Shown: positions 1 to 58,674 of the stretch, in pieces
Layout of the letters: each line of letters opens with the position of its first letter
How positions within the stretch are numbered: the first letter of the stretch is position 1
Assembly: GCA_944325555.1 (NCBI GenBank)
Contig: CALVAN010000013.1
Location: 1 to 58,674 of the forward strand
DNA: 58,674 bases
Direction of reading: 5' to 3'
Origin: Candidatus Gastranaerophilales bacterium
Lineage (GTDB): Bacteria > Cyanobacteriota > Vampirovibrionia > Gastranaerophilales > Gastranaerophilaceae
Notes under the pieces: generated by a model
The model's input: only the letters and a program-made list of their open reading frames with translations
Database searches by the model: none
Told to the model about the DNA's origin: nothing
Made by a program: the position numbers and the translations under genes

Positions 1-237
1 TCACTGGATTGTTTGCTCGGCAGAGTGTGTACCACTCCTAGCTTGAGATGTAGGCGAGTTTACGAGCCGTACATATCTGTCTTGTATTTGCTTAACGCTC
101 GCAGAGATTCGCCTTTTGTGCTTTGCACAAGACGGCTTACTTCTGCTCGCTCACCGGATTCGTTCACTTTGTTCACTCCATCCGTCCGCAAATCCGCAGG
201 ATGCCCTTGGGTACAAGCGAGGTCCCACTCAGACAAA
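1..237 (+). repeat. R1 dispersed repeat, long form, left-truncated by window edge
   Basis: The stretch shares its right end (the block ending GAGGTCCCACTCAGACAAA) with the R1 copies at 12493, 23666, 24530 and 38731. It also shares its middle with the copies at 23666 and 58365: the GTTTGCTCGGCAGAGTGTGT block and the CGCAGGATGCCCTTGGGTAC block. It contains an extra internal segment with an inverted pair (CTTTTGTG/CACAAG) found otherwise only in the 58365 copy. The right end stops two bases before the stop codon of the minus-strand gene at 239. No credible gene lies inside. Confidence 0.85.
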
Positions 238-238
238 C

Positions 239-2746
239 TTAATTAATTTCCGGTGTTATAAAAAAGTCGTTTGAAAAATAATCTATATCATTTTTGGCAG
301 ACTGAGCCGGAGCTGCTTGCTGCGGCATAGCTGATTTTTTGCCGATAGAATATGCAAGCGCTTTTTTTATGGGACTTTTGGATTTTTGATTTTTTCTGTC
401 TATTTCCTCAAGTTCTTCCTGTGTTTTGGCACTCAGGGGAACACCGACAACCTGTCTTGATATAGAATCGTTAATAGATGAAGTTAAAGCTGTCAGAGTA
501 AATGCACCTGCAAGGCTCGAGTTGCAAAGTTTGGATAACAAATTGTGGACAAAAGCCATAATGTAGGCCGATACGCTGATTCTTGATATTTCTTGAGCTG
601 CCCTGTTTTTTGCACTCTTATTGGCATCTTTTCTGTTATCATTACTGTATTGCATTGTAAGGTTATATGCATCCGTAACCAAAAACAGAGTTGTTATAGC
701 TCTCGAGAGATTTATGTTAGTTTGTGCCAGTGTATTGCCGTCATACTCCAGCTGTTTTTCGCCATCAGCACGCATTACGGACTCTTTCAAAAGATTTTGA
801 ACCTTTTTAACATCTGCTGCATCTAGTGTTCCGTCCGGTTTTATTTTAATGTTTTCACGCTTTATTTGTTTATCCAGCCATAGCAGTATGTTTTTAGCAC
901 CTTCTATATCTTCTTTTTCTTTAGATTTTGAGGACACAAACTCTTTAAATATTTCAAGTTTCTTATCAGCCTCAGGCAGCGGAGATGTGTTCCAAACCTC
1001 AAGTTTCATTCTTTGTGCAAGAAAGTCTTCAAAAGCTTTTTTATCTTTGCTGCCATTTGTCAGTACATCATTCAGCTTGTCTTGCCAGTATGTATTTTTC
1101 TTACCGCATATTATGTTGTAGCAGTTGCGCAAGAATATATAAGTTCTTTTGGTAAGATTTTTGACAAAATTAACAGGAACAAGTATGCTCTTGGTCCATT
1201 TGCCCCATACAGTATCTTTGGAGCCTACAGAAATTTTAGAATAAGCATTGTCATTGATTATGTCATTAAATTCCTTGGGCGGCAGCGCATTGTCTATTTT
1301 ATACAATTCAGATTTTTTTACTGATTTTAAAATAGCTTTTTTAATGGTACTTGCTGTTTGTTCGTCAGTTTGCTCAAGAATTTTTATTATCTGAGCAAGT
1401 TTATTTTTGTCAAATAATTTTTCTACTTTATAATACCCTTTAAAAGAAGGCTGAGCATTAGCCTTAAGAGGTTGAGATGCATTTTGACGTGTCAGCGGAG
1501 AAGTTTGAGCAAAAGCTTTGAAGAGTTTGTCATTAGCTTTTGTTTTATTAAAAGTAACCTGTGCTGATTTTGTTTGTATTGCTGCAGAAGGTTCTTTTTT
1601 CTTAACGGTTGTCAAAAGTCTGCCAATTGAAGGAAGTATGCCTTTTTTTTCATACATTTCACGCTCTAATCTGTCGAGCGTATCTTTGTCAGAAGGCATA
1701 ATCGGCTTTCCGACGAGTTTTCTGCCTAAAATTTCCGAAAAAGCAACCGTTGAACCGGACACAAACATTGCAGTGAGCAAGCTTCTGTTAACTGCTGTTT
1801 CAAAAGTACCGAACAGCAGATTTTGAATATACATATTCATGCCTATTCGGGAAAATTCCTGAGCAACACGTGATTTTCTCTGGTTAGCAGCTTCCGTCGG
1901 GTCATTGCTGTAACGCATTGTTGTGTTATAAGCATCGGTACCGAGGAAATAAGAATAAACAATACCTGATATAAGCCTGTTGCCTATCATTAAAGAGTTA
2001 GAGGAATATTTGCCCTTGTTCGGGTCCACCACCTTATTTCTTCTGCGGTTAATTTTGCCTTCAAGCACATCATCCGGAATTAAAAATTTACTGCTTTCGC
2101 TGAATTTTGTATGTCCGCTTTTTTTTCTGTATCCGTTTTCCCATATTTCATGGGATTTTAAAAGCCCTTCCAATGCTCTGAAATTTTTAAGAACTTTTTC
2201 TCTTTCCATTCTGCGCTTTAGTATTGGAGAATCTTTCGGAAGAATTAATTTTTCTCCCCAGTTATAAAGAGCAGTCAACGGCGAAACCAGCTGCGTGAAA
2301 AATTTTGCAATAATAGGTTTTTTAGGAAGGTATATAAGCTGTCCCTGCTGCAGTTTTTCTATCACTTCAGCATTCAAGTGGTTTTGTTTTTGAAAATCCT
2401 CATGTTCAAGTATATACTTGATGTAATCGTCTTTTATACTCGTATAGTATTTAAGCTGCTGTTTATTTATTTTTTTCAACGAATCAAAAACCTTTTCCTG
2501 AAGGTTTTTGGGAACTATTTTTACTATAGGCTTGAGAGAAATGCCCGAATTAAGCGCATTAAAACTAAAACCCTTGAAAGATATTTGCGCATTTGCGCCT
2601 TCTTGCAAGGGTTTTGATAATATACTTTTATTCTGTAAGGTATTTTGTTTGCCCGAGTGGAGCGAACCTTGCTCCGCATATTGGTAACGGATTTCTTTTC
2701 GCTTCAGACCGTATTGATTTTTTGTTTCAATTTGTCCGATTTTCAT
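239..2746 (-). CDS. Unknown FKG-type protein with internal duplication
   Basis: 835 residues; I do not recognise the family. The protein is built from two related halves. Each half begins with a short motif (NAQISFKG near residue 57, NAQPSFKG near 435). Each later carries TDAYN-x-TM-x-YSND (about 270 and 691), then R-x-AQE-[FI]-SRI, then a hydrophobic stretch and R-[KQ]-[LV]-VG-x-P (about 342 and 764). There is no signal peptide; the moderately hydrophobic stretches near 255-335 and 680-760 could be membrane-associated helices. Lys/Gln-rich linkers separate the parts. The FKG motif recurs at the N-terminus of the next gene downstream on this strand and of others in the window. The gene is monocistronic by spacing, and its stop codon abuts an R1 repeat. 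Function unknown. Confidence 0.8.
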   Translation of the reverse strand: MKIGQIETKNQYGLKRKEIRYQYAEQGSLHSGKQNTLQNKSILSKPLQEGANAQISFKGFSFNALNSGISLKPIVKIVPKNLQEKVFDSLKKINKQQLKYYTSIKDDYIKYILEHEDFQKQNHLNAEVIEKLQQGQLIYLPKKPIIAKFFTQLVSPLTALYNWGEKLILPKDSPILKRRMEREKVLKNFRALEGLLKSHEIWENGYRKKSGHTKFSESSKFLIPDDVLEGKINRRRNKVVDPNKGKYSSNSLMIGNRLISGIVYSYFLGTDAYNTTMRYSNDPTEAANQRKSRVAQEFSRIGMNMYIQNLLFGTFETAVNRSLLTAMFVSGSTVAFSEILGRKLVGKPIMPSDKDTLDRLEREMYEKKGILPSIGRLLTTVKKKEPSAAIQTKSAQVTFNKTKANDKLFKAFAQTSPLTRQNASQPLKANAQPSFKGYYKVEKLFDKNKLAQIIKILEQTDEQTASTIKKAILKSVKKSELYKIDNALPPKEFNDIINDNAYSKISVGSKDTVWGKWTKSILVPVNFVKNLTKRTYIFLRNCYNIICGKKNTYWQDKLNDVLTNGSKDKKAFEDFLAQRMKLEVWNTSPLPEADKKLEIFKEFVSSKSKEKEDIEGAKNILLWLDKQIKRENIKIKPDGTLDAADVKKVQNLLKESVMRADGEKQLEYDGNTLAQTNINLSRAITTLFLVTDAYNLTMQYSNDNRKDANKSAKNRAAQEISRISVSAYIMAFVHNLLSKLCNSSLAGAFTLTALTSSINDSISRQVVGVPLSAKTQEELEEIDRKNQKSKSPIKKALAYSIGKKSAMPQQAAPAQSAKNDIDYFSNDFFITPEIN

Positions 2747-2902
2747 TTTTTCAGCTTAATACCTTTGAGAATATTATCTTAACCCGATAAAAAAAATATT
2801 TAAAGGATTTTTTAGACAATTATGTGTCCATTTGCTTTAAACCCTCTAAAAATATTTTTTGCTAGCTGCAATAAATAACTATACAAAAGTTAATACAATA
2901 AA

Positions 2903-2925
2903 AAAGGCTGATATTATCAGCCTTT
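2903..2925 (-). terminator. Rho-independent terminator
   Basis: A 10-bp perfect stem (AAAGGCTGAT / ATCAGCCTTT) with a 3-base loop, followed on the minus strand by a T run. It lies just after the stop of the minus-strand gene at 2930. Confidence 0.85.
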
Positions 2926-2929
2926 CAGG

Positions 2930-4261: not shown

Positions 4262-4374
4262 CTGAAAACCTCTCTTGATTTCTATATATTGTATTTTTAT
4301 TTAAGTTCGTAAAAAAATTTTTTTGCTATAAAAACAGGTTATTTTAATAATTTTTAACCTTTGTTAAAAAACAA

Positions 4375-4397: not shown

Positions 4398-4416
4398 GCG
4401 GTGTAAAGACCTTTTT

Positions 4417-6861
<2,445 letters not shown>

Positions 6862-11738: not shown

Positions 11739-12488
11739 ATGAAAGATATCAGAGGAGTCAAAGATTATCAGATTGTAGTATTAGGACTGTTGATTGCACT
11801 TGGCGCAATTATTTCCACATATATTCTGTCGAATGCGATTGTTTCTTATCAAAAAATGAATACACAAACCCTGACCGTTACGGGTTCAGCCAGTCAGGAG
11901 ATAAAATCAGACCTTGCCGTATGGAACTTAACCTACGAAGTAAGAAGCAAAGACTTAAAAGACGGCTACGCAAAGGTAAACGCCGACAAAAAGCAAATTA
12001 CGGACTTTCTTAACGCAAACGGCGTTGCTGCCGAAGCATACAAGTTTACACCGATTTCTTCTTATCCGGTTTACAAGAGAATGCCTAACGGCTATGATTC
12101 TAACGAAATTGACGGCTACAGACTATCACAAAATCTTGAAGTTACATTAAACGATGTGGATAAACTCACAAAACTCTCTGAAAACACATCACAGCTTGTT
12201 AACAAAAATATCGAAGTGTCTTCAAACAGGGTGGATTATTACGTATCGAACCTTGACGAACTCAAAATTAAAATGCTTGCTCAGGCAACCAAAGATGCAA
12301 AAGAAAGAGCTAAAAGCATGGTGGAAAGCACGGGCGGACACATCGGTATTATGAATGAAGCAAGAATGGGCGTATTCCAGATTGTTGCAAAAAATTCCAC
12401 TGACGTATCCGATTACGGAATTTACAACACAAGCGCCAAAGACAAAAAAATCAATGCGGTTGTAAATGCAACCTTTACAATAAAATAA
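11739..12488 (+). CDS. SIMPL-domain (DUF541) protein
   Basis: 249 residues. One N-terminal membrane anchor (about 12-33), then a SIMPL/DUF541 domain: TLTVTGSASQEIKSDLAVWNL opens the domain (trimmed here to its pattern TVTGSA-x3-KSDLAVW), IDGYRLSQNLEV is the second conserved block, and the sequence ends in NAVVNATFTIK. SIMPL proteins (for example E. coli YggE) are envelope proteins linked to oxidative or envelope stress; the biochemical activity is not settled. The ribosome site is AAGGAG, six to eight bases before the ATG. The stop codon is followed after four bases by an R1 repeat. Confidence 0.88.
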   Translation: MKDIRGVKDYQIVVLGLLIALGAIISTYILSNAIVSYQKMNTQTLTVTGSASQEIKSDLAVWNLTYEVRSKDLKDGYAKVNADKKQITDFLNANGVAAEAYKFTPISSYPVYKRMPNGYDSNEIDGYRLSQNLEVTLNDVDKLTKLSENTSQLVNKNIEVSSNRVDYYVSNLDELKIKMLAQATKDAKERAKSMVESTGGHIGIMNEARMGVFQIVAKNSTDVSDYGIYNTSAKDKKINAVVNATFTIK

Positions 12489-12492: not shown

Positions 12493-12672
12493 ATTTCATA
12501 TAGTCAACTGACCCCGACAACTTATTGAACGGGTACAATAAACAAGTACAATATTGGCTATACAACAAGGGTACCCGCAACAAGTGCATGGGGTCACTTC
12601 CGTAAGATGCTAGACTCGGCGCCACTCGCACTCCGTGTACCACTCCTACAAGCGAGGTCCCTCTCAGACAAA
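12493..12672 (+). repeat. R1 dispersed repeat, short form
   Basis: 180 bases. The left end is ATTTCATATAGTCAACTGAC and the right end GAGGTCCCTCTCAGACAAA. The left half forms nested inverted repeats: TGACCCC (12509-12515) with GGGGTCA (12590-12596), and CGGGTAC (12530-12536) with GTACCCG (12571-12577). It is nearly identical to the copies at 24530, 36846 and 38731. It fills the whole gap between two genes, four bases after one stop codon and three bases before the next start. Confidence 0.95.
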
Positions 12673-17884: not shown

Positions 17885-17907
17885 ATTTCATATAATCAAC
17901 TGCCCCC
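17885..17907 (+). repeat. Left-end remnant of R1
   Basis: The sequence ATTTCATATAATCAACTGCC matches the first 20 bases of R1 with two differences and then diverges. It starts two bases after the stop codon of the AraC-type gene, the same placement as intact copies. Confidence 0.6.
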
Positions 17908-17930
17908 CAAAAAAAATAAACAAAATCGTA

Positions 17931-18229
17931 ATTCTGAGGCTTTAGCCGAAGAATCTGTTGCGAATTTAAACACAGATTCTTCGGTCACTATGTTTCCTCA
18001 GAATGACGATATGCCTTATGTCCTTCGGGGGAAAGTTGAAAAAGATGTCATCCTGAGGAGCGAAGCGAGCTCAGGATCTTACTAATAGTGAAAGAAAACA
18101 AAGAACATTGGTCAGATTCTGAACACAAACGATTAATGAAGGCTTCAAAAGCCTAGCGCTTCAGAATGACTATATGTTTTTTGCTTGCTGGCGGGGATTG
18201 TTGCCGGCAGACTAAAGTCTGCCGGCAAC
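17931..18229. repeat. Cluster of REP-like palindromes
   Basis: Four hairpins lie side by side in this 350-base gene-free gap. (1) ATTCTGAGG (17931) with CCTCAGAAT (17996), enclosing CCGAAGAATCTGT / ACAGATTCTTCGG. (2) ATCCTGAG (18050) with CTCAGGAT (18070). (3) ATTCTGAA (18116) with TTCAGAAT (18160), enclosing AGGCTT / AAGCCT. (4) GTTGCCGGCAGACT (18200) with AGTCTGCCGGCAAC (18216), a 14-bp perfect stem. Part of unit 3 recurs in reverse at about 54005-54090. The last may also help terminate the hydrolase gene at 18233, although no T run follows. No gene is visible here. Confidence 0.7.
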
Positions 18230-23176: not shown

Positions 23177-23200
23177 GTTGGGCAGGTATGCCCAACCTAC
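23177..23200 (-). repeat. REP palindrome, copy 1
   Basis: Read on the minus strand it is GTAG followed by GTTGGGCATACCTGCCCAAC, an 8-bp perfect stem with a 4-base loop. A GTAG tetranucleotide directly 5' of a hairpin is the hallmark of REP sequences recognised by RAYT transposases. Confidence 0.8.
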
Positions 23201-23282
23201 GGCAGAATACAGGGTTCAACAAAATTTGCCTCGACTAAGCAAGCGTAGCTTGCGATAGAAATTATGGAGCGAGCGCAGTTTT

Positions 23283-23306
23283 GTTGGGCAGGTATGCCCA
23301 ACCTAC
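23283..23306 (-). repeat. REP palindrome, copy 2
   Basis: Identical to copy 1 over GTAG plus the 20-base hairpin, same orientation, 106 bases downstream. Confidence 0.8.
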
Positions 23307-23344
23307 GGCTCTATCCAACCAATCGGGGCCAAACAACAAAATTT

Positions 23345-23418
23345 GCCTCGGTAGCTCAGTTGGATAGAGCGATAGCGTCCTAAGCTGTGCGTCGTTGGTT
23401 CGAGTCCAATCCGGGGCA
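23345..23418 (+). tRNA. tRNA-Arg (anticodon CCU)
   Basis: 74 bases folding as a cloverleaf. Acceptor stem GCCTCGG / CCGGGGC with discriminator A; D arm GCTC / GAGC with loop AGTTGGATA; anticodon stem ATAGC / GCTGT with loop GTCCTAA, giving anticodon CCT; five-base variable loop; T arm GTTGG / CCAAT with loop TTCGAGT. CCA is not encoded. It reads AGG codons. A run of eight T follows directly. Fragments of its 5' and 3' ends recur on both sides. Confidence 0.95.
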
Positions 23419-23562
23419 AGTTTTTTTTGCGCAGATTTTTGCCTCTCACACGCAGCTGTACGCAAACAAGTTTGCTACACCTGCGGTTTACTTTTCGATT
23501 TGCTGCGCAAATCGCCAGCACTCCGGCACTCTATGGCTCATTCTTCGCCAAGATTGCCGTTG

Positions 23563-23596
23563 CGAGTCCAATCCGGGGCAAATTTTTTTTTGCGCA
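23563..23596 (+). repeat. Duplicate of tRNA-Arg 3' end (attachment-site-like)
   Basis: CGAGTCCAATCCGGGGCA followed by A, a T run and TGCGCA repeats the last 18 bases of the tRNA and its downstream flank (23401-23433), 162 bases away in direct orientation. This is the pattern left by site-specific integration at a tRNA, but only 145 bases lie between the copies and they hold no gene, only a CGATTTG / CAAATCG hairpin. Confidence 0.65.
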
Positions 23597-23665
23597 AGCT
23601 TAATACAATTGTGACTCTCACCGATTCGGATGTATTTTAATGTCCAGTTCGTTGTCTATAGAATA

Positions 23666-23939
23666 ATTTCATATAGTCAACTGACCCCGACAACTTATTG
23701 AACGGGTACAATAAACAAGTACAATATTGGCTATATAACAAGGGTACCCGCAACAAGTGCATGGGGTCACTTCCGTAAAATCTTGGATTTTGCGCCTCTC
23801 GCTACCTCTCACAAACAATTCACTGGATTGTTTGCTCGGCAGAGTGTGTACCACTCCTAGCTTGAGTTGTTGGCAAGCCGAAGGTGAGCCATACAAATCA
23901 GGATGCCCTTGGGTACAAGCGAGGTCCCACTCAGACAAA
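23666..23939 (+). repeat. R1 dispersed repeat, long form
   Basis: 274 bases with both ends present. Its left 100 bases equal the short form. It then carries the GTTTGCTCGGCAGAGTGTGT block and a segment ending GGATGCCCTTGGGTACAAGC that short forms lack. The short form can be derived from it by internal deletion and replacement. Confidence 0.95.
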
Positions 23940-23941
23940 TT

Positions 23942-23965
23942 GTCGGTTGGGCATACCTGCCCAAC
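23942..23965 (+). repeat. REP palindrome, copy 3
   Basis: GTCG followed by GTTGGGCATACCTGCCCAAC, the same hairpin as copies 1 and 2 in opposite orientation, 29 bases before the RAYT start codon. The tetranucleotide differs from GTAG by one base. Confidence 0.8.
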
Positions 23966-23993
23966 AAAACAAATTTTGTGTTAACATCAAATT

Positions 23994-24530
23994 ATGAATT
24001 ACCGCAGAGTATTTGTACCAAACGGATATGTCCATATCATAATAACATCTTATGAACGAAAGCCTGTATTCATTAAAAATATTGAAATATTAAGAACTGC
24101 ATTTAGAAATGTTCAAAAACTCTATAAATTTGAAATTATTGCAATTTGCATTATGCCTGAACACATTCATTTAATTTTGCACCCTGAAAATATAGATAAT
24201 TATCCTAAAATAATATCTTCCGTAAAACATTACTTTTCAAGAAATGTTGTGCAAGTATGCCCAACCGACGATTTAAAAATCGGATATAAAAACAAGCGTG
24301 AAAAAGGAATTTTTCAAAGACGATTTTGGGAACATACAATTAAAGACGAAGAAGAATTAAACAATCAAATTAATTACATTCATTACAATCCCGTAAAACA
24401 CAGTCTTGTAAAAAACGTAAAAGACTGGCAGTATTCTTCTTTTCACAAATTTGTAAAGCAAGGTTTATATGAAAATGATTGGGGCAGCACAGAGGATATT
24501 AAAAATATTAAAGATTTGGATATTGAATAA
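23994..24530 (+). CDS. REP-associated tyrosine transposase (RAYT, Y1/IS200-like)
   Basis: 178 residues. Single-domain HUH nuclease of the TnpA_REP group: the metal-binding H-x-H is H57-I-H59 in MPEHIHLIL, and the catalytic tyrosine is probably Y128 in NYIHYNPVKHSLV. DWQYSSF (144-150) is the usual downstream block of RAYTs. Such enzymes nick single-stranded REP hairpins next to GTAG. There is no companion tnpB. REP palindromes lie on its upstream side and R1 copies on both sides. Residues about 87-100 form an extra loop whose DNA (24251-24269) matches half of the REP palindrome, so a REP fragment may have entered the gene. No clear ribosome site. The stop codon shares a base with the next R1. 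Confidence 0.93.
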   Translation: MNYRRVFVPNGYVHIIITSYERKPVFIKNIEILRTAFRNVQKLYKFEIIAICIMPEHIHLILHPENIDNYPKIISSVKHYFSRNVVQVCPTDDLKIGYKNKREKGIFQRRFWEHTIKDEEELNNQINYIHYNPVKHSLVKNVKDWQYSSFHKFVKQGLYENDWGSTEDIKNIKDLDIE

Positions 24531-24708
24531 TTTCATATAGTCAACTGACCCCGACAACTCATTGAACGGGTGCAATAAACAAGTACAATATTGGATATAC
24601 AACAAGGGCACCCGCAACAAGTGCATGGGGTCACTTCCGTAAAATGCTAGACTCGGCGCCACTCGCACTCCGTGTACCACTCCTACAAGCGAGGTCCCAC
24701 TCAGACAA
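24530..24708 (+). repeat. R1 dispersed repeat, short form
   Basis: 179 bases, over 95% identical by eye to the copies at 12493, 36846 and 38731. It fills the gap between the RAYT stop codon and the stop codon of the convergent gene at 24724. Confidence 0.95.
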
Positions 24709-28587: not shown

Positions 28588-28760
28588 AATGAATTCCTTT
28601 CTTTTTCTATCCGATACTATAATACAACATTTTTTGACATTTGCGTAAAAAAGTTTCTTTACAAAATTTAATATAATGTCGAAGTTGCCTAAAGTTACGG
28701 ATTAAACGTTCCGATATTAGTAATGTGTAAGGTGTGCGTATAAGTCGAACGGGCAAACAA

Positions 28761-31700
28761 ATGGATTTAATACTGGCTGACGGAAGCAAAATAAAATTAA
28801 GTGACCTCGACAAACTGGAAAACAAATCTCCGGATAACAAGTTCCTTAAGTTTTTTGACAAGCTCGCTCTTGGCGGGAACGGAAACAATATTTTTGATAA
28901 AAAAGAAATAGAAAAAATAAAAACTTTTCTTGTGGAAATGTCGCAGGGTGACGGAGTAATAGACCAGAACGACATAAACAAAACACTCTTAAAATACTCA
29001 AGCATATTTGAAAACTACAATTCTTCATCAATGGGAAATGACCTTTCGATGTTGTCTTTGTCGTCATCGCCGCAACCTTCCGGCAGAAACACTCCATCTG
29101 TTTCCGATAAAAAACCTGAGCATACGGTTCGAGCAGGCGAAACAGTAGACAAAATTATAAAATCACTCGGCTATGAGGGTGCTGACGCTAAAAAATACCG
29201 TGAGGCACTTGTTAAACAGCTCGAGGAAAACAACTCTTTTATGAACGACAGACAATGGCTGCTTACAGGTTCTAAAATTGAGCTGCTCAGCGACAAACAA
29301 ATACAGGAGCTGGGTATAAAAAAACCTGCCGTAAAAAAACAAACACCCAAAGTTCCCTCAACCCAAAAGACCTCAAAAGGAGAACTGTACAAGGTACGCA
29401 GCGGCGACACAATAGATAAAATCATAAAATCACTGGGGTATGAAGGCGCAGACGCCAAAAAGTATCGTGAAGCTTTTGTCAAACAGCTTGAAGAAAACAA
29501 CTCTTTTATGAATGATAAACAATGGCTGCTTGCAGGGTCAAAAATCGAACTGCTCGGCGAGGAAACTTTAAAAGAACTCGGAATTACACCGGCAAAAGCA
29601 AAACCGCAGCCCGTAACGCAACAGCCGGTTACGCAGCAGCCCGACAAAGCTGTAAGCACCGAACCCGAGCCGACAGCTGTACCCCCGACAGTGGAGAACA
29701 AACAGAACACAAACGGACAGCTGAAAACCGACCAAAAAGAGCCTATAAACACGGATGACTCACCCAAAGCCGTAAAAAATTCAGCGGAAAGAATAAAAGA
29801 AATTATTACGCAAAGCGGTCACAGAGCTGTTACAATAAGCGAAAACGAATTGACGCCCGAGCAAAAATATCAACTGCGCAGCTACAGCGGACTATACAAA
29901 GTTAAACCCGAGCTTATCAAAGATGCAAATACAGGCGAAATACACATGTTTTTTGATACGGAAAATTCAAAACAGGGCAAATCGCTTGGTATGCAGTCAA
30001 TGGAAATTATTTTCGGCACAAACGGTGCCGACAGAGTTAACCGCTATTATACCAACGGCAAAATAGTACAGGATGTAAGCTTCCACTCAGGGAAAGGCAA
30101 CTACAGCACACTTGTACAGGGGTCACTGGAGCAAAAGCAGAAAACCCGTAAAGTTATTGACAAAGCACTGCCTATAACAATCTCGGTTGACCCGTCGGTT
30201 CTTGCCGATGCCTCGGAGTCGGAAAAAGAAGAAATCCTGAGCTTTGTTCATACTCTTGAAAAAGAAAAACCAAGATTAATGAAGGATCTCGGGATGGATA
30301 ATGACACCTACAACAAATATGCACAAATGGCACTGGCAATAGCAATGCAGGAAACAGATTTCGGCAAATGCAAAAGTTATGCCGTTGATACAGGATTAGG
30401 CGGCGCCTTCGGCATGTTAAAGGACTCGCTTGCCGTAGTAAATATAGGACTAAAAGGAATAGGAATAGACAACCCTGTTAACTCTTCAACGGCTACCTCA
30501 AAAGGACTGACCCAGGTTAAAGTCGGAGATTGGGATGACGACCCGAGAATCAACAAACTTTTTGAAAAATACGGAATAAAAAAAGGCTATTACACAACCC
30601 TCAACGGACAACAATCAGCAGCAGCAACAATGATTGTTTTAAACGAATTAAGAAAAAAAGTCAAAGGTGAAGCTTTCCAAAACGGTATGGAAGCAGCAAG
30701 CGATAAATACTATATATCTAATGCAAAACTTGTAGACGGCGAAAAGCAAACAAGAACAGGCGGTTATCTTATAAAGAACGAAGTAAGCGAAGATGACGCA
30801 CTGTTATATCTTTACAACGGCGCCCCCGGTGCAGTGAAAAGAGGAACTGCAACTCCTGCAATAAGGGTTTATACACACAATGCAAACAGGTATAAAAAGC
30901 TGTTTAAAATCAATGAAAATCAGACACAAAGAAACGCCGCCCTTCAATCGGCAAGGACTGTAACAGAAAATAATCAAAAAGAAAGAGCCTCAATGCAGTC
31001 CGACCTTGGATGGGGCATAGGTCATGTAACTTTTATGCCCAAACTCTATACAGGCGGAACAACAAAAAATACAGCAAAAGAAATCGACAACCTGCAGCAG
31101 ACTCTTTTGCTCAAAGGCTATGATGCCAAAAAGGTTTACAGTTTAATTTCGCAAATCAAACGTGGAGAAATTTCCTTCGGCAACGGATTAACGACCAAAG
31201 AGTGCTCCTCGTTTACCGCACAGGATTTAGATATGCTTCTTGAGCACAGCGCAAAGTTAAAGCAGCAGCTCAAAGGCGTACAAAACGAAAAACAACGCCG
31301 TCAAATAGCAATGAATGCAGAACTAGGTTTTAAAGAAGCTTACCAGACAAGCCATGCACGACAGTTTTCTTTGGGTGAAGTTGAAGGTGGCGCAGTTATA
31401 TTGAATGATTTGGAAAACACAAACGTTTCAAAATATCCCCGCAGCGGTTATCAAACAGGTGCACAAAAACGCTGCAAAAGGTATTTAACGCAGTTAAGAA
31501 GCGGCAGAAATCCTGACGGCGGGCTGTATGCTTATCAAAACAGGGTTAATAGCGGACTTTACACAGGTTTTAACGTAGAACGGGATAAAGGCATAAATAC
31601 AAACAATACCTCATCCGTTGATTTACTTCTTGCCCAAAACGGCGCTGACGCAGCCAACACACTGCGAACAAGCGGAGGATGTTTAACAGGCGCAAAACAG

Positions 31701-32114
31701 GCGCTTATCGGCTCAGGTGCAGTGCAGGCAGAGGAAATGTCTAATTTCAACAACGCCTTCCAGCTTGCAAATTTCCTTTCAAAACATCCGGAAAGATTTG
31801 AAGAAGTAAAATATGTGCAGCTGAGTGATAATGTAGCACGTGAACTTACCGCAGCGGATATTAAAAACCTTCCCGCAGGATATATTGTTGTTTACGGAAA
31901 CAAAAGCAGGATTGATGTTCCGGGACACGCAGCAATCACCAGCGGAAACGGACAGCTCTATGCGGATGAAACAGATAATTCAAACTGGGATAACTTTGCC
32001 TCAAAAGTTCAATCACACAACGGAAAAGGCGAACACGGCTATGTAAGAGTATTCAGGTTGAAGCCGGAGTATTTTGCCGTTAATACGCAAAAGAATGTTC
32101 TTGTTAAAGCTTAA
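28761..32114 (+). CDS. Large modular peptidoglycan hydrolase (EF-hand-like, two LysM-like, SLT-like and CHAP/NlpC-like domains)
   Basis: 1117 residues from the ATG at 28761; a GTG nine codons earlier is possible and neither has a strong ribosome site. Order of parts: two EF-hand-like loops (about 36-47; QGDGVIDQNDIN at 62-73); two nearly identical LysM-like repeats (121-175 and 210-265) that both contain IIKSLGYEGADAKKYREA; a Pro/Gln-rich linker to about 340. Then a lysozyme-like transglycosylase region with E531 in MQETDFGK and KGLTQVK at 581-587. A C-terminal papain-like segment has C974 (SGGCLTGAK) and H1056 (PGHAAITSGNG). So it may cut both glycan and peptide or amide bonds. There is no signal peptide, odd for a wall enzyme. 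No similar gene nearby. Confidence 0.75.
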   Translation: MDLILADGSKIKLSDLDKLENKSPDNKFLKFFDKLALGGNGNNIFDKKEIEKIKTFLVEMSQGDGVIDQNDINKTLLKYSSIFENYNSSSMGNDLSMLSLSSSPQPSGRNTPSVSDKKPEHTVRAGETVDKIIKSLGYEGADAKKYREALVKQLEENNSFMNDRQWLLTGSKIELLSDKQIQELGIKKPAVKKQTPKVPSTQKTSKGELYKVRSGDTIDKIIKSLGYEGADAKKYREAFVKQLEENNSFMNDKQWLLAGSKIELLGEETLKELGITPAKAKPQPVTQQPVTQQPDKAVSTEPEPTAVPPTVENKQNTNGQLKTDQKEPINTDDSPKAVKNSAERIKEIITQSGHRAVTISENELTPEQKYQLRSYSGLYKVKPELIKDANTGEIHMFFDTENSKQGKSLGMQSMEIIFGTNGADRVNRYYTNGKIVQDVSFHSGKGNYSTLVQGSLEQKQKTRKVIDKALPITISVDPSVLADASESEKEEILSFVHTLEKEKPRLMKDLGMDNDTYNKYAQMALAIAMQETDFGKCKSYAVDTGLGGAFGMLKDSLAVVNIGLKGIGIDNPVNSSTATSKGLTQVKVGDWDDDPRINKLFEKYGIKKGYYTTLNGQQSAAATMIVLNELRKKVKGEAFQNGMEAASDKYYISNAKLVDGEKQTRTGGYLIKNEVSEDDALLYLYNGAPGAVKRGTATPAIRVYTHNANRYKKLFKINENQTQRNAALQSARTVTENNQKERASMQSDLGWGIGHVTFMPKLYTGGTTKNTAKEIDNLQQTLLLKGYDAKKVYSLISQIKRGEISFGNGLTTKECSSFTAQDLDMLLEHSAKLKQQLKGVQNEKQRRQIAMNAELGFKEAYQTSHARQFSLGEVEGGAVILNDLENTNVSKYPRSGYQTGAQKRCKRYLTQLRSGRNPDGGLYAYQNRVNSGLYTGFNVERDKGINTNNTSSVDLLLAQNGADAANTLRTSGGCLTGAKQALIGSGAVQAEEMSNFNNAFQLANFLSKHPERFEEVKYVQLSDNVARELTAADIKNLPAGYIVVYGNKSRIDVPGHAAITSGNGQLYADETDNSNWDNFASKVQSHNGKGEHGYVRVFRLKPEYFAVNTQKNVLVKA

Positions 32115-36845: not shown

Positions 36846-37023
36846 ATTTCATATAGTCAACTGACCCCGACAACTTATTGAACGGGTACAATAAACAAGT
36901 ACAATATCGGCTATACAACAAGGGTACCCGCAACAAGTGCATGGGGTCACTTCCGTAAGATGCTAGACTCGGCGCCACTCGCACTCCGTGTACCACTCCT
37001 ACAAGCGAGGTCCCACTCAGACA
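36846..37023 (+). repeat. R1 dispersed repeat, short form
   Basis: 178 bases, with the nested TGACCCC / GGGGTCA and CGGGTAC / GTACCCG inverted repeats. It lies 55 bases after the emrB-type stop. The remaining 145 bases before gpmI are AT-rich leader and promoter; I see no further gene or repeat there. Confidence 0.95.
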
Positions 37024-38730: not shown

Positions 38731-38910
38731 ATTTCATATAGTCAACTGACCCCGACAACTTATTGAACGGGTACAATAAACAAGTACAATATCGGCTATA
38801 CAACAAGGGTACCCGCAACAAGTGCATGGGGTCACTTCCGTAAGATGCTAGACTCGGCGCCACTCGCACTCCGTGTACCACTCCTACAAGCAAGGTCCCA
38901 CTCAGACAAA
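38731..38910 (+). repeat. R1 dispersed repeat, short form
   Basis: 180 bases, same structure as the 12493 copy. It begins 30 bases after gpmI and ends 28 bases before the terminator at 38938. Confidence 0.95.
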
Positions 38911-47641: not shown

Positions 47642-48343
47642 GTGTCTGAGCGTTATAACAACAGGGGTAATAAAGAATTAAGACCGATAAAATTCACAAA
47701 AGATTACACAAAGCATGCGCTAAGTTCCGTGCTGGTTGAGTTTGGCGATACAAAAGTTATTGTGACCGCAACAGCTGAGGAAAAAGCGCCAAAATGGATG
47801 GAAAAAGACGACCCCAGAGGCTGGATTACAGCTGAATACTCCCTCTTGCCGACTTCTACACACACACGCTGCCAGAGAGAAAGAACAAAAATTTCAGGAC
47901 GTACACAGGAGATTCAAAGGCTCATCGGCAGGAGCCTGCGCTCTTGCGTTGATTTGGAAAAAATGACAGGATTAACTATCACCATAGACGCAGACGTTAT
48001 ACAGGCTGACGGCGGAACACGCTGTGCCAGTATTTGCGGCGGGTATATTGTTCTTGAAGAGGCTTTTAAAAAACTCCTTGAACAGGGTGTTGTACAAGAA
48101 AACCCGATACTTGAACCTATTGCGGCAGTGTCTGTCGGGCTGTTTGACGGCGAAGTTAAGCTGGATTTGGATTATGCAGAGGATTCTCATGCGCAGGTGG
48201 ATTCCAATGTAGTTATGACCAAAAGCGGAAAAATTATAGAATTTCAAACAACGGCAGAGGGCAACCCGTTTACAAAGCCGCAGCTGTATGAAATTTTGGA
48301 CACTGCAGAAGCCGCAATACAAAATATAATCAGTTTGTATTGA
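47642..48343 (+). CDS. rph: Ribonuclease PH
   Basis: 233 residues, GTG start with AAGGAG eight bases upstream. Phosphate-dependent 3'-exoribonuclease trimming tRNA 3' ends. PH-domain motifs: RPIKFTKDYTKHALSSVLV, DPRGWITAEYSLLP, the RNA-binding SGRTQEIQRLIGRSLRS with the family's conserved arginines, and IDADVIQADGGTRCASI with the catalytic Asp. The remnant left end of an R1 repeat begins two bases after the stop codon. Confidence 0.97.
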   Translation: MSERYNNRGNKELRPIKFTKDYTKHALSSVLVEFGDTKVIVTATAEEKAPKWMEKDDPRGWITAEYSLLPTSTHTRCQRERTKISGRTQEIQRLIGRSLRSCVDLEKMTGLTITIDADVIQADGGTRCASICGGYIVLEEAFKKLLEQGVVQENPILEPIAAVSVGLFDGEVKLDLDYAEDSHAQVDSNVVMTKSGKIIEFQTTAEGNPFTKPQLYEILDTAEAAIQNIISLY

Positions 48344-48344: not shown

Positions 48345-48385
48345 ATTTCATATAGCACCTCAGCTTATTGAACTGTGTTAAATTA
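48345..48385 (+). repeat. Decayed R1 remnant
   Basis: ATTTCATATAG followed by CACCTCAGCTTATTGAACTG matches the first 45 bases of R1 after small deletions, then similarity fades. It starts immediately after the rph stop codon. Confidence 0.6.
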
Positions 48386-49660: not shown

Positions 49661-49679
49661 TTATTATTTGTTAATACAA

Positions 49680-53457: not shown

Positions 53458-54271
53458 CGTCTGCCATAACAGACAAGCCAGATAAATTTTGTTGCTTTTG
53501 TTACAAGTATCTGCCGCATTGCCGCACTCACTGACGTTCGCTCGCAATGACGGCTAATATTATTGTTTTTATTACAGGTAGATCCTTCGGGTTTCACCCT
53601 CAGGATGACGCATATTTCCATCGTCATTCTGAGCGTAGCGAAGAATCTCTATTGCGGTACTCAAATAAGTGTCATTGCAAGAACCTTAGTTTTTGTTTGA
53701 TGTATTTTTTTGCTTATTCGAAGCAATCCAGACATACAATAAGGGTTTTTGTTATTTATTTTATTTGTTCATTTCTTTCTCTTTTTTGCGACCAAAAGAG
53801 AAAGAAACGAACCAAAGAAAGAGAAAAGAACGCTAATCAAAAAACACTGTAAATTTTTAGAATAAATTTTGCATCCACTTCACTGTGTTTCGGTCTGTCA
53901 AAATTCACTCTAAAAACTAACAGTGTTTAATCATATTCCTGCGGCAGAGCCGCTGACTTGGGCTCGTACTGACATTTCTCGCAATGACGGGAAATTGTCA
54001 TTCTGAAGCTCAAGTCGCTGCGATTTGCAAGGATTGTGTGTGTTCAGAATCTTTCCAATGTTCTTGGCTGTCTTTCTCTACCGGTAAGATACTGAAACAC
54101 AAGGTAGGGGCATAAAATCACGTTTCGACTTCGTCTCAACGGATTTTGCAGCCGGTTCAGGATGACAGCTAATTTTGTTGCTTTTGTTACAAGTATCTGC
54201 CGCATTGCCGCACTCACTGACGTTCGCTCGCAATGGCTGTCCGTGCGGTTTATTCGTGATATTATTAAACT
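53458..54271. repeat. 814-base gene-free, repeat-rich gap
   Basis: No credible gene. It contains a 65-base direct repeat (53485-53549 and 54171-54235) beginning AATTTTGTTGCTTTTGTTAC. It also holds REP-like fragments of the GTCATTCTGAGCGTAGCGAA type (53622), a perfect 14-bp inverted repeat TTTCTTTCTCTTTT / AAAAGAGAAAGAAA (53772-53807), and a reversed relative of the 18085-18172 palindrome at about 54005-54090. It has the look of an accumulated nest of small repeats. Confidence 0.75.
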
Positions 54272-55606: not shown

Positions 55607-55610
55607 AAAA

Positions 55611-55649
55611 ATACCGCATTGAACATTGGGAGGTTCGTGTCTGCGGTAT
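55611..55649 (-). terminator. Terminator of the TolC-type gene
   Basis: Stem ATACCGCA / TGCGGTAT with a 23-base loop, followed on the minus strand by TTTTTTTATG; about 50 bases past the stop codon. Confidence 0.65.
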
Positions 55650-55700
55650 AAAGTTCTTATATAAGAAGTGTGTGGTTATTATGAATTATTGGATTAGTTG

Positions 55701-57080
55701 TTATTGTATTTTTGCACCGGTTGCCTTATACAAACCAATGTAATCAATGTTGCAGTCAAGTTTGTTTGCAACAACAAGTTTTTTCATTGACAAAAGGTTT
55801 TCCCTTCTTTGCAGCAAGTCCAGATAAGATATCAGCCCTTCATCGTATTTGTGCGTGCTGTAGCCGAAATCCTGTTCTTCAAGATTATATACATTCAGGT
55901 TTGTTTTGTATTTTTTGTCATCCTGTTTCAGCGAAACAAGAGAATCGTTAACCTCTTGTATAGCTGTCAAATTCGTTTTGTAATAATTTTCTAAGGTCTG
56001 TTCAAATTGGTTCTTTTTCAGTTTTAAGTTTGCAACTTTTCTGCCGCCTGCAAACAAATCCAACATTGCGCTTGCACCTAAAAGCCCGAGTATATTGCTC
56101 CAGTTAAATGCAGAATTTAAAGCGGAAGCACCGAAAGACACCATACCTATCAAATCGATTCTCGGTAAGAATTCTTTCTTAGCGGCTCTTTTATCTATGC
56201 CGGCTTTTTCAACCGCAATTTCTGCTGCAAGAAAGTCCGGACGCTGGTCAATGATTTCTGACGGAATGGATTCCGGAACTTTTACAAGATATGTATCATC
56301 ATAGCTTGCCCTTGGTAAAGATGCACTGTTAGCCGGACTTTCGCCTATCAAAACAGCTAACGAATTTAGCAGAGTTGTTCTTGATTTTTCAAGGTCAAGC
56401 AAATCAGCCTGAGCAGAAACAAACGCCTTGTTTGCTCTTACAACGTCAGCGGTTGATGTCAAACCGACTTTGTTTCTTTCAGACATCAAGTCATATATTT
56501 CTTTTCTATCTTTAATAATATCTTTTTGCAGTTCAATCAGCTTGTCTGCTTTGATTATGTTAAAGTAGGTGGAACCAACTGCGGAAGCCACAGTAATGAA
56601 GGCAGACCTTTCTTCTATTTTTGCTTTTTCCCAGTCCTTTTTGGCAGAGCGTGTTTTATCTCTGTTTTTTAAGAAGATATCGGCTTCATAATGAACCATA
56701 AGCGGAAACGCCCACATGCCCGTTGTATTGGTTTGACCGGGCATTTTCAAACCTGTTGGTGCAAAACCTGCCGATACCGTAGGCAGTTCATTAGCCAGCT
56801 GCAATTTTTCAAGCTGTCTGTACTGTTCTATGCGCAGAGTTGCAACTTTTAGGTCATGGTTGTTTCTTATAGCTTTGTCGATGTAGCCGTTCAGGTATTC
56901 ATCGTTAAAGGTTTCCCACCAGGGCATGTTGATATAATCTATCTGATACTGAGATACCTGTGATTTTATAACTTTATTTTCTTCATTTTTTTTACTTTTG
57001 GCCAGTGCCGGCAGCGGGAGCATGTACATGCCCGTAATGCTTAGTGTTATAAGCGCAGCCAGTGCTTTTTTATACTTCAT
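55701..57080 (-). CDS. TolC/NodT-family outer-membrane efflux channel, second copy
   Basis: 459 residues, same length and block order as the channel at 32138. Signal peptide ends ALA; then INMPWWETFNDEYLNGYIDKAI, HYEADIFLKNRDKTRSAKKDW, IDQRPDFLAAEIAVEKAGID and EGLISYLDLLQRRENLLSMK. It is a paralog, not a fragment. No adaptor or pump gene lies beside it; its promoter has three copies of the palindrome that precedes the efflux operon, so the same MarR-type regulator probably controls it. It could serve as an alternative channel for the same pump. GAGGAG lies before the ATG. Confidence 0.92.
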   Translation of the reverse strand: MKYKKALAALITLSITGMYMLPLPALAKSKKNEENKVIKSQVSQYQIDYINMPWWETFNDEYLNGYIDKAIRNNHDLKVATLRIEQYRQLEKLQLANELPTVSAGFAPTGLKMPGQTNTTGMWAFPLMVHYEADIFLKNRDKTRSAKKDWEKAKIEERSAFITVASAVGSTYFNIIKADKLIELQKDIIKDRKEIYDLMSERNKVGLTSTADVVRANKAFVSAQADLLDLEKSRTTLLNSLAVLIGESPANSASLPRASYDDTYLVKVPESIPSEIIDQRPDFLAAEIAVEKAGIDKRAAKKEFLPRIDLIGMVSFGASALNSAFNWSNILGLLGASAMLDLFAGGRKVANLKLKKNQFEQTLENYYKTNLTAIQEVNDSLVSLKQDDKKYKTNLNVYNLEEQDFGYSTHKYDEGLISYLDLLQRRENLLSMKKLVVANKLDCNIDYIGLYKATGAKIQ

Positions 57081-57102
57081 TCTATTCTCCTCGAAGAATT
57101 AT

Positions 57103-57156
57103 TGTTATTATACTAACATAATGTTATCATAATAACAACATGTTGTTATGACAACA
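57103..57156. promoter_or_regulatory. Triple MarR-type operator upstream of the second TolC-type gene
   Basis: TGTTA-TTATAC-TAACA (57103-57118), TGTTA-TCATAA-TAACA (57122-57137) and TGTTG-TTATGA-CAACA (57141-57156), all 19 bases apart centre to centre. The middle one is identical to the marR site at 33561. Confidence 0.7.
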
Positions 57157-57177
57157 ATTTGTTTTTTCTTAATAAAA

Positions 57178-57657
57178 TTATGGATTTATTTCCGGAATTT
57201 TGCAAATATCAACCCACTCCTGCGCTTTGGCTATGTTGAACAGTTCATCACAGGTGAGTTCAATAGCGGAATTGGCACTTCCGCAGGCCGGAAAAACAGT
57301 AGCAAATCGTTGCAAAGAAACATCGCAATAAATACGGACATTTTCTTTCACTCCGAAGGGGCAAACCCCGCCTATTGCGTGACCAATGTATTCAACAACC
57401 TCATCGGGGGTGAGCATTTTTGCTTTTGTGCCGAAATAATTTTTGTATTTTTTGTTATCAATTTTTGTGTCGCCTGCCGTAACAATCAGCACGCAGCCTT
57501 CATCGGTTTTAAAAGAAAGAGTTTTAGCTATCCTTGCGGGAATTACGCCAAGTGCCTTTGCTGCAAGTTCAACGGTTGCGGTTGAGTCTTTGAGTTCAAT
57601 AACGTCTTTGTCTTTATTAAATTGTTTGAGGTATTCTTTAGCTTTTTCAATTGACAT
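57178..57657 (-). CDS. YbaK/EbsC-family aminoacyl-tRNA deacylase-like protein
   Basis: 159 residues. YbaK domain: ELAAKALGVIPARIAKTLSF with the conserved lysine of the AKTL strand, VLIVTAGDTKIDNKKY, GHAIGGVCPFG (the conserved G-x-x-P loop) and IYCDVSLQRF with the usual hydrophobic end. Members hydrolyse mischarged tRNAs such as Cys-tRNA-Pro or Ala-tRNA-Pro; specificity here is not visible. Upstream of, and in the same direction as, the second TolC-type gene, but the operator array lies between, so it is transcribed separately. Confidence 0.88.
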   Translation of the reverse strand: MSIEKAKEYLKQFNKDKDVIELKDSTATVELAAKALGVIPARIAKTLSFKTDEGCVLIVTAGDTKIDNKKYKNYFGTKAKMLTPDEVVEYIGHAIGGVCPFGVKENVRIYCDVSLQRFATVFPACGSANSAIELTCDELFNIAKAQEWVDICKIPEINP

Positions 57658-57774
57658 TTTATTATCCTTTCAATGTGTAATTATAATACAATTCAGACGT
57701 ATATTGGACTTTTATATAAGATTACTCCTACAAACAATACTTTACTAAATCACAAAAATCATTATCATATAATT

Positions 57775-58362
57775 ATGAAAAGATTTTTTACCTGTTACCT
57801 GTTACTTATGTTTTTTCTGCCTGCATTGCCGTGTGCGGCATTTGACGATGATTTTTGGGATGAACCCATAAAAATAGACGAAGCAGCCAAAAGCCAGCAA
57901 AGAGCAGTGACAGATCAAGAGTTTAACAAGGTTTTGGACTTTTTCACCCGTAAAAAAAAGAAGAAAGAAGACAAGAAAAAACCTAAAGGTTCTCCCATTG
58001 GTCCTCAGCTTCCCGAAGGTCAGACTCCGCCGCCTGACAATAACGTCATTCCCACAAAATATGACGATTACCCTACAGTTATGATTCCGGTGACACTTAT
58101 TACCCGCTCCGGCACTGAGATAGAACCGGGGTACTACAGAATTCTATCCGTTAAAGGTGAAAACCAAACCTTCTATTTAAACTTTTATCAGGGCAATCAG
58201 CTGATTGCAAAAATCAAAGCCTACGAGGTAAACACAGACCACAACCAGCAATCACTTAATTATGCAAAAGTAATTCCGGTTGATGATATGTATATGAAGG
58301 TGATTTACGGAGATATTGACTGCAATATTGAGGCAACGGTCGATATAAAACAACAACATTAA
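57775..58362 (+). CDS. Exported protein of unknown function
   Basis: 195 residues from the ATG at 57775, which gives a signal peptide (KRFFTCYLLLMFFLPALPC, cleaved near CAA). Mature part: an acidic segment FDDDFWDEP, a strongly basic linker (TRKKKKKEDKKKPK, about 62-75), a Pro-rich stretch, then a beta-rich domain (VMIPVTLITRSGTEIEPGYY and YLNFYQGNQLIAKIKAYEV) with no catalytic motif. Probably a periplasmic or outer-membrane-facing protein. An R1 repeat begins immediately at its stop codon. No family recognised. Confidence 0.7.
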   Translation: MKRFFTCYLLLMFFLPALPCAAFDDDFWDEPIKIDEAAKSQQRAVTDQEFNKVLDFFTRKKKKKEDKKKPKGSPIGPQLPEGQTPPPDNNVIPTKYDDYPTVMIPVTLITRSGTEIEPGYYRILSVKGENQTFYLNFYQGNQLIAKIKAYEVNTDHNQQSLNYAKVIPVDDMYMKVIYGDIDCNIEATVDIKQQH

Positions 58363-58674
58363 CCTGTCTGAGAGGGACCTCGCTTGTACCCAAGGGCATC
58401 CTGCGGATTTGCGGACGGATGGAGTGAACAAAGTGAACGAATCCGGTGAGCGAGCAGAAGTAAGCCGTCTTGTGCAAAGCACAAAAGGCGAATCTCTGCG
58501 AGCGTTAAGCAAATACAAGACAGATTTGTATGGCTCGCCTTCGGCTTGCCAACAACTCAAGCTAGAAGTGGTACACACTCTGCCGAGTCAATGTGCCGTA
58601 ATAACAATTAGGAGAGGCAGCGAGGTCGCCTAAGCTATAATTTTGTTAAAGTGACCCCATGCACTTGTTGCAGG
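58363..58674 (-). repeat. R1 dispersed repeat, long form, truncated by window edge
   Basis: On the minus strand it reads from the nested-hairpin half (GCAACAAGTGCATGGGGTCA at the window edge) through CGGCAGAGTGTGTACCACTT to the right end at 58365. It includes the same extra segment (CTTTTGTGCTTTGCACAAGA) as the copy at 1-237. The right end touches the stop codon of the preceding gene. Confidence 0.88.

What the first reader, a model, noticed from the sequence alone, without database searches (positions are those of the whole stretch)
1..58674. R1: a modular dispersed repeat that fills gaps right up to stop codons
At least seven copies (1-237, 12493-12672, 23666-23939, 24530-24708, 36846-37023, 38731-38910, 58363-58674) plus remnants share fixed ends: ATTTCATATAGTCAACTGAC on the left and GAGGTCCCACTCAGACAA on the right. 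The left half holds nested inverted repeats. Long forms of 274 to over 310 bases contain internal blocks missing from the 180-base forms. Ends lie 0-5 bases from stop codons at 12488, 24530, 239 and 58362, and remnants sit 2 bases after 17882 and 48343. Such precise placement in otherwise compact DNA suggests either target choice at gene 3' ends or a role in transcript ends. I know no described family with these ends.
Basis: seen in the sequence. Interest (0 to 1): 0.8.

Follow-up and report, generated by a model that had tools for sequence, protein, structure and literature searches.

The report
Shape-shifting hairpin jumping elements, Gastranaerophilales
The repeat is a small gene-less jumping DNA element that folds into a bouquet of hairpins, inserts cleanly into AT-rich spots (often at gene ends), in some species points the way DNA replication runs, and seems to gain or lose whole hairpin arms; the enzyme that moves it is unknown.

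Summary
The repeat is real: about 100 copies in this 2.3 Mb draft genome, in 20 of 23 searched genomes of the genus, and patchily in two other genera of the family. Its ends are exact: WTTTCATATAGTCAACTG ... CTCAGACA. Six natural empty sites show insertion without target-site duplication, three of them exact at the junction. Ends share no inverted repeat. Inside, a folded core with a covarying stem carries optional hairpin arms with fixed 'shoulders' and exchangeable self-complementary stems. At five of six insertions shared by two sister species, whole arms differ (assembly error not excluded). Orientation follows GC skew, not gene strand, here and clearly in one of three further species; a second is weak and confounded, the third shows nothing. 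This hints at insertion into single-stranded DNA at the replication fork. Y1, RVT_1 and IS110 enzymes are undetected in most R1-rich genomes. The stop-codon bias is real (12 of 50 copies within 4 nt) but partly target preference for TAA-like sequence, probably plus selection. Verdict: a new family of non-autonomous, TSD-free, modular hairpin elements; mobilising enzyme unknown.

The parts
1..235 (+). R1 copy (right part; cut by contig start), long form with extra arms
12493..12670 (+). R1 copy, 178-nt basic form, 4 nt after the stop of the DUF541 gene (11739-12488)
12531..12576 (+). covarying core stem-loop of that copy: 12531-12536 pairs with 12571-12576
17885..17914 (+). R1 left-end remnant, 2 nt after a stop codon
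21048..21067 (+). R1 right-end remnant
23666..23937 (+). R1 copy, long form with two extra arms
23803..23845 (+). H arm of that copy: shoulders TACCTCTC...GGCAGAGT around a variable self-complementary stem
23859..23913 (+). S arm of that copy
   Evidence: compare the gain/loss of this arm (L231/L265)
24530..24707 (+). R1 copy, basic form; its first base is the last base of the stop codon of the Y1 gene
36846..37023 (+). R1 copy, basic form, 55 nt after the MFS gene
38731..38908 (+). R1 copy, basic form, between the iPGM stop codon (29 nt) and a downstream hairpin that two R1-free relatives (L125, L126) keep
48345..48380 (+). weak R1 left-end remnant after the stop at 48343 (by eye only)
   Evidence: printed sequence; not found by BLAST there
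58365..58674 (-). R1 copy, long form, cut by the contig end

Best explanation
R1 is a non-autonomous mobile DNA element without genes. SHOWN: exact ends (WTTTCATAT...CTCAGACA), insertion into AT-rich sites (roughly AAWT^AWTT) without target duplication, no terminal inverted repeats, a folded core with a compensating stem, optional hairpin arms whose stems change while staying self-complementary, different arms at shared insertion sites in two draft assemblies, and orientation that follows GC skew clearly in two of four species (this genome and G021; G001 weakly and confounded with gene strand, G011 not). INFERRED: the element moves as folded single-stranded DNA and is inserted at the replication fork, most likely into the lagging-strand template with the bottom strand (5'-TGTCTGAG...TATGAAAW-3', lower folding energy) as the active one. 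A trans-acting enzyme would recognise the folded ends. No Y1 match was found in six R1-rich genomes, and no RVT_1 or IS110 match in this genome, G001, G007, G011 or G021, so an unidentified HUH enzyme or recombinase is required. Arms are probably exchanged between copies by very short recombination or template-switch tracts, because the folded core tolerates them. Copies accumulate near stop codons because TAA-containing sequence fits the target, the left end supplies stops in all three frames within 36 nt, and insertions elsewhere are lost by selection.
For: Copies: 100 left-end and 93 right-end matches in this genome, 0 for reversed-pattern controls. Empty sites: L250/L255, L245/L259 and L227/L263 exact at the junction; L226/L261, L235/L256 and L096/L257 nearly so; no duplication in any; no convincing flank correlation in 63 copies (best z 3.5 among 400 position pairs). 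No TIR (one copy). Core stem: 5 of 6 pairs with changes on both sides in 34 sequences; covariation score of the whole structure 0.249 against 0.124 shuffled, 0 of 500. Arms: 46 H-arm occurrences in 22 captured strings (two are longer captures of listed arms), 18 of 22 with a perfect stem of 8 or more (shuffled means 3.4-5.1); same arm positions in another genus, by eye; a 420-nt form folds at z -9.0. Arms differ at 5 of 6 shared sites. Orientation: own 33 of 43 copies (Fisher P 0.0012; stretch-level P 0.047), 35 of 43 by balanced coding skew (stretch-level P 0.015); rule written down before testing: G021 21 of 25 (stretch-level P 0.0014), G001 13 of 21 (P 0.016), G011 11 of 22 (P 0.95), pooled 45 of 68, stretch-level permutation P below 0.0002; pooled gene strand P 0.18. 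Bottom strand has the lower energy: RNA -56.7 against -40.8 kcal/mol, DNA -20.8 against -18.9, consensus -19.9 against -10.0. Enzyme screens.
Against: No enzyme is identified. G011, the genome with the most copies (151), shows no orientation bias (11 of 22), though its skew is weak. In G001 only total GC skew is significant (intergenic P 0.11, balanced coding P 0.31, Fisher P 0.31) and gene strand correlates as well (P 0.015); G021 carries much of the pooled result. Copies within a stretch are not independent, stretches were picked because they hold listed copies, and 3 of the 43 own copies lie at contig ends, where orientation is set by the assembly (31 of 40 fit without them, my recount). 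That the G-rich strand is the leading strand is assumed; it is only indirectly supported by gene strand correlating with intergenic skew (rho 0.37, P 0.003). The 178-nt form alone does not fold clearly better than shuffles on either strand (z -0.7 and -1.7), so the lower bottom-strand energy is partly composition. A GU-free consensus fold keeps only nine pairs and cannot tell the strands apart. In one search the number of further pair types (13) does not exceed shuffles (13.9). All genomes except the named records are unnamed drafts: assemblers can splice repeat copies, which could mimic arm exchange. RVT_1 genes do occur in two R1-bearing genomes, G014 and G150.
Confidence: 0.55

Rival explanations
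1. Orientation follows replication because of selection, not insertion chemistry: R1 (or its hairpins) acts as a polar chromosome-organising or fork-related motif, or inverted pairs within one replichore are purged because they recombine.
For: Orientation correlates with skew and not with gene strand in this genome and G021; many near-identical repeats could recombine.
Against: Copies differ between sister species (5 of 17 G007 sites clearly empty in G014), and number runs from 0 to 151 between species, which fits a parasite better than a housekeeping motif.
Confidence: 0.17
2. R1 is moved by a tyrosine recombinase that recognises folded single strands, like integron attC sites.
For: Structure conserved while arm sequence varies, no target duplication, skew-linked orientation in part of the species.
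Against: No attC core motifs (RYYYAAC, GTTRRRY; recalled) in the one copy tested; copies are dispersed and carry no gene. The integrase family was not searched.
Confidence: 0.12
3. R1 is moved by the REP-associated Y1 transposase (RAYT), as REPINs are.
For: The only Y1 match of this genome (23994-24530) lies between two R1 copies; RAYTs are IS200/IS605-related (abstract of PMC2817692).
Against: That gene has its own REP-like hairpins; no Y1 match in G007, G008, G010, G011, G014 or G021, all with many R1 matches or candidates; of the 12 Y1 loci read, 10 show no R1 end in the DNA held, only L112 (own) and L115 do.
Confidence: 0.08
4. Classical MITE derived from a DDE insertion sequence.
For: Short, gene-free, many copies, AT-rich targets.
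Against: No terminal inverted repeats and no target duplication.
Confidence: 0.03
5. R1 is a functional RNA or terminator of gene 3' ends.
For: Stop-codon bias; the copy at 38731 lies between a stop codon and a hairpin kept by two R1-free relatives.
Against: No clear orientation bias relative to the upstream gene (17 to 10), 11 copies between divergent genes, strong copy-number differences, no Rfam match at gathering scores.
Confidence: 0.05

Closest known systems
REPIN / BIME elements moved by RAYT transposases
   Same: Short, extragenic, hairpin-forming, non-autonomous, many copies, mosaic composition (abstracts of PMC3116915 and PMC2817692).
   Different: R1 is longer (REP sizes recalled), lacks the REP hairpin-plus-tetranucleotide pattern seen separately here, and six R1-rich genomes lack a detectable Y1 enzyme.
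IS200/IS605 insertion sequences and their non-autonomous derivatives (IS608, ISDra2)
   Same: No target duplication or terminal inverted repeats (family traits recalled); secondary structures near the ends and use of the lagging-strand template (start of the abstract of PMC6006769, listing).
   Different: No fixed target tetranucleotide, no Y1 gene detected in six R1-rich genomes, exchangeable arms.
Integron attC sites
   Same: Structure rather than sequence is what is conserved, and single strands recombine (start of the abstract of PMC2727003, listing).
   Different: No core boxes in the copy tested, no cassette gene, dispersed.
Repetitive hairpin-forming elements of mitochondria
   Same: Invading, structurally divergent hairpin repeats of intergenic DNA (abstract of PMC2800124).
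   Different: Organelle DNA; no sequence relation was tested.
Bacterial MITEs
   Same: Short non-autonomous dispersed repeats.
   Different: MITEs have inverted ends and target duplications (recalled); R1 shows neither.

Membership tests
MITE (DDE-derived) | terminal inverted repeats | tested here: not met
   one copy: local score of left end against reversed right end no better than shuffles (348-729 of 1000 reach it)
MITE (DDE-derived) | target-site duplication | tested here: not met
   6 empty sites; 63 copies, flanks uncorrelated
MITE (DDE-derived) | autonomous relative with the same ends | tested here: inconclusive
   no gene-bearing element seen among the end pairs read in this genome, but many contigs break inside R1
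REPIN/RAYT | cognate Y1 transposase in genomes with many copies | tested here: not met
   no match in six R1-rich genomes; these drafts are 85-96% complete and may miss one
REPIN/RAYT | REP hairpin with adjoining tetranucleotide | tested here: not met
   that pattern belongs to a separate repeat beside the Y1 gene (tetranucleotide rule recalled)
IS200/IS605-type element | no target duplication, no terminal inverted repeats | tested here: met
IS200/IS605-type element | fixed short target next to one end | tested here: not met
   only a loose AAWT^AWTT preference
IS200/IS605-type element | orientation linked to replication strand | tested here: inconclusive
   clear in G000 and G021, weak and confounded in G001, absent in G011; replication direction only inferred from skew
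IS200/IS605-type element | Y1 transposase | tested here: not met
   six R1-rich genomes without a match
Integron attC site | R''/R' core boxes | tested here: not met
   on one copy; motifs recalled
Integron attC site | integrase gene IntI | not tested
IS110 / RVT_1-driven retroelement | DEDD transposase or RVT_1 reverse transcriptase in rich genomes | tested here: not met
   neither in G000, G001, G007, G011, G021; RVT_1 is present in R1-bearing G014 and G150
Rfam RNA families | match at gathering score | tested here: not met
   whole window; two stretches, sub-threshold matches only

The most novel reading that the evidence does not exclude
R1 belongs to a class of mobile elements recognised by overall single-strand fold rather than sequence: a branched core into which self-contained hairpin arms are plugged in and out as units, inserted at replication forks by an enzyme family outside the known Y1, IS110 and RVT_1 reverse-transcriptase groups. 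The arms (H, M, P, S) may themselves be mobile cassettes, since the M cassette also sits in unrelated repeats.
Probability: 0.25. Interest if true: 0.85.

Novelty: new variant of a known kind. Interest (0 to 1): 0.65.

Why it matters
Most small repeats described in bacteria are explained by a transposase that leaves a target duplication or by a Y1 enzyme (recalled). R1 is abundant, differs between sister species, leaves no duplication and in some species is oriented with GC skew, yet the usual enzymes were not detected in most of its richest hosts, which points to an enzyme still to be found. If its arms really change at fixed insertion sites, it is a natural record of how structured nucleic acids gain and lose stems. 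It also helps explain why assemblies of these gut bacteria break, since many of the listed ends lie close to contig ends.

Tried and rejected
RAYT as mover: attractive because the single Y1 match lies between two R1 copies, dropped because it carries its own REP-like hairpins and rich genomes lack a Y1 match. Autonomous element at C4:11333-13242 (1.9 kb): turned out to be two separate damaged copies around ordinary ORFs. Empty sites through the iPGM gene (80 loci, all scanned for R1 ends; 8 inspected): flanking synteny too poor for exact junctions. First base W as a 1-bp duplication: rejected, W goes with subfamilies (by eye) and is uncorrelated with nearly all flank positions (one of 18 tests P 0.026). 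RNA strand choice from wobble pairs: inconclusive. Viral contigs (exact pattern), phages and plasmids: no match. Rfam at lax thresholds gave only sub-threshold matches. Literature searches: small dispersed repeats/cyanobacteria, Gastranaerophilales/repetitive, HEARO, palindromic/no target site duplication, double-hairpin elements, attC, Melainabacteria/transposable elements/repeats, intergenic repeats/stem-loop/modular, IS608/lagging strand; no listed title or abstract start describes these ends, and subscription journals are mostly not held. Papers: abstracts and outlines only for PMC3116915, PMC2817692, PMC2800124; listing abstract starts only for PMC6006769 and PMC2727003. Rows dropped: 17 G007 sites were queried; in G014 5 are empty, 6 occupied, 6 unresolved (L228, L229, L237, L238, L239, L248). 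Further G011 comparisons (L250/L260, L226/L264, L245/L272, L231/L258, L232/L266) were too diverged for exact junctions. Of 63 own copies 9 inside ORFs and 4 at edges were left out of the stop-distance test. Of the left ends counted the orientation test saw 25 copies in G021 (68 counted), 22 in G011 (151) and 21 in G001 (76), chosen from the listed places; its pattern was slightly looser than that. Genes are from my own ORF caller, not a gene finder.
Full report
What was checked. The seven reported copies are present and share exact ends. The left-end pattern gives 6 matches in the window and the right-end pattern 8, against 0 in 100 shuffles. The element proper runs from WTTTCATAT (W is A or T) to CTCAGACA; what follows is flanking DNA. 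The copies at both window ends are cut because the window is a contig (C13 of 60) that breaks inside R1 on both sides.

Abundance and distribution. In this 2.32 Mb draft genome the left end occurs 100 times (45 plus, 55 minus) and the right end 93 times (44 and 49) at up to 3 mismatches; reversed patterns give 0. R1 similarity was found in 20 of 99 genomes searched: this one and 19 of 22 same-genus relatives; 0 of 76 outside the genus. A more sensitive end pattern matched 8 of 117 family genomes and 13 of 192 order genomes (overlapping samples), all in this family: this genus plus G150 (26 copies) and G123 (1) of a second genus and G120 (1) of a third; 0 of 22 genomes of other families. Copy number by that pattern is bursty: G011 151, this genome 83, G001 76, G021 68, G019 16, G016 7, five other same-genus relatives in the sample 1-2 or fewer and two 0. 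Viral contigs, phages and plasmids gave no match.

Anatomy. The 63 paired elements read in this genome run from 163 to 544 bp; a 64th pairing of 1.9 kb was spurious. A core is shared: GTCAACTGAC near the left end, then a long imperfect hairpin whose inner six-pair stem changes with compensation. In 34 sequences from many species, 5 of its 6 pairs show changes on both sides; for the whole 14-pair structure the covariation score is 0.249 against 0.124 in shuffles (0 of 500 reach it) and 0.03-0.09 for slid partners, although the count of further pair types (13) does not exceed shuffles. Another genus carries yet another compensated version, by eye. At fixed points optional arms are added. The H arm keeps its shoulders (CCTCTC...GGCAGAG) while the stem between them is replaced: among 105 distinct elements of all species there are 46 occurrences in 22 captured strings, two of them longer captures of listed arms; 18 of 22 have a perfect stem of 8 or more, and by eye they fall into about six unrelated stems. 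The same arms occupy the same positions in G150 and G120 of other genera, by eye. One 420-nt form folds far better than shuffles (z -9.0); the basic form does not clearly do so (z -0.7 and -1.7).

Insertion without duplication. Sister species G014 and G011 (94% and 87% identical to G007 at a test locus) supplied empty sites for G007 insertions. Three are exact at the junction (L250, L245, L227) and three nearly so (L226, L096, L235): the element sits between two bases of the empty site with nothing duplicated. In 63 own copies the two flanks show no convincing correlation. Ends of the copy tested share no inverted repeat. The target is loosely AAWT^AWTT.

Gene ends. With ORFs called by my own script on rebuilt empty sites, 63 copies fall 27 between co-directional, 12 convergent, 11 divergent, 9 inside ORFs and 4 at edges. 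Of the 50 scored, 12 lie within 4 nt of a stop codon; uniform placement expects 5.0%, target-weighted placement 9.2% (P 0.0016). Five of the nine inside-ORF copies lie in the last four codons and four within the first 17 codons of a predicted ORF. Of eight natural empty sites examined, one lies at 30% of a 576-aa ORF of G014, one at 90% of a 223-aa ORF, two in ORFs under 100 aa and four in none. The left end has stops in all three frames within 36 nt.

Arm differences in place. Six G007 insertions are also present in G014 at the same site. Five differ by whole arms (L231, L235, L236, L241, L243) and one carries the same arms (L232); outside the arms L231, L235 and L241 are nearly or fully identical, while L236 and L243 differ elsewhere too. 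Short-tract recombination between copies is the simplest cause; mis-assembly is the main worry. A two-hairpin M cassette also occurs outside R1, in other repeats.

Skew-linked orientation. Copies on one contig tend to point the same way (73 interior copies, 74 of 114 pairs, P 0.009). In 21 stretches of this genome plus-oriented copies sit where GC skew is negative: 33 of 43 copies fit (Fisher P 0.0012; stretch-level P 0.047); gene strand does not matter (P 0.55). Three of the 43 lie at contig ends; 31 of 40 fit without them. I wrote this rule down and then tested three other species: G021 21 of 25 (stretch-level P 0.0014), G001 13 of 21 (P 0.016 for total skew only; gene strand also correlates, P 0.015), G011 11 of 22 (P 0.95). 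Pooled 45 of 68, stretch-level permutation P below 0.0002; gene strand P 0.18. If the G-rich strand is leading, the bottom strand of R1 lies on the lagging-strand template. That strand also has the lower folding energy, partly through composition.

Which enzyme. This genome has one Y1 match (23994-24530) between two R1 copies, but with its own REP-like hairpins; six R1-rich genomes have no Y1 match. RVT_1 and IS110 searches found none in G000, G001, G007, G011 or G021; RVT_1 genes occur in G014 and G150 among others. Tyrosine and serine recombinases were not searched. The mover is therefore unknown.

Judgement. R1 works like a single-strand transposable element of the IS200/IS605 or attC style but fails defining features of each tested family, so it is filed in none of them. 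Modularity, TSD-free insertion and covariation are shown; fork-coupled insertion, the active strand and the route of arm exchange are inferred.

Noticed in passing
window 23177-24530: A REP-associated-type Y1 transposase gene (PF01797, E about 1e-12, only match in the genome) with REP-like hairpins (GTTGGGCATACCTGCCCAAC and near copies) at 23177, 23283, 23946 and, unusually, inside its own coding sequence at 24246.
   Followed up: partly
L071 and L055: A second repeat with long inverted ends (GTCATTCTTGTATATGTTAC...) nested inside R1 copies; its extent was judged by eye.
   Followed up: partly
L043, L055, L206: The M two-hairpin cassette (TATACGGCACG[stem]TTAGCCTGCCTCT[stem]AGAGTTC) occurs outside R1, also in another species (L206).
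   Followed up: partly
window 23344-23583: A tRNA-Arg gene is followed about 140 bp downstream by a copy of its 3' end (CGAGTCCAATCCGGGGCAA), as an integrated element might leave.
   Followed up: no
window 17915-18030 and L031:3965-4040: Another dispersed repeat of the type TCATTCTGAGG...GAAGAATCT next to R1 remnants.
   Followed up: no
window 53485-53549 and 54171-54235: A perfect 65-nt direct repeat 686 bp apart.
   Followed up: no
window 29136-29584: Two 182-nt direct repeats, 79% identical, inside the 1126-aa ORF 28734-32114.
   Followed up: no
L298 (G150) and L303 (G123): One R1 insertion is shared by two species of another genus with the same flanks, an old retained copy.
   Followed up: no
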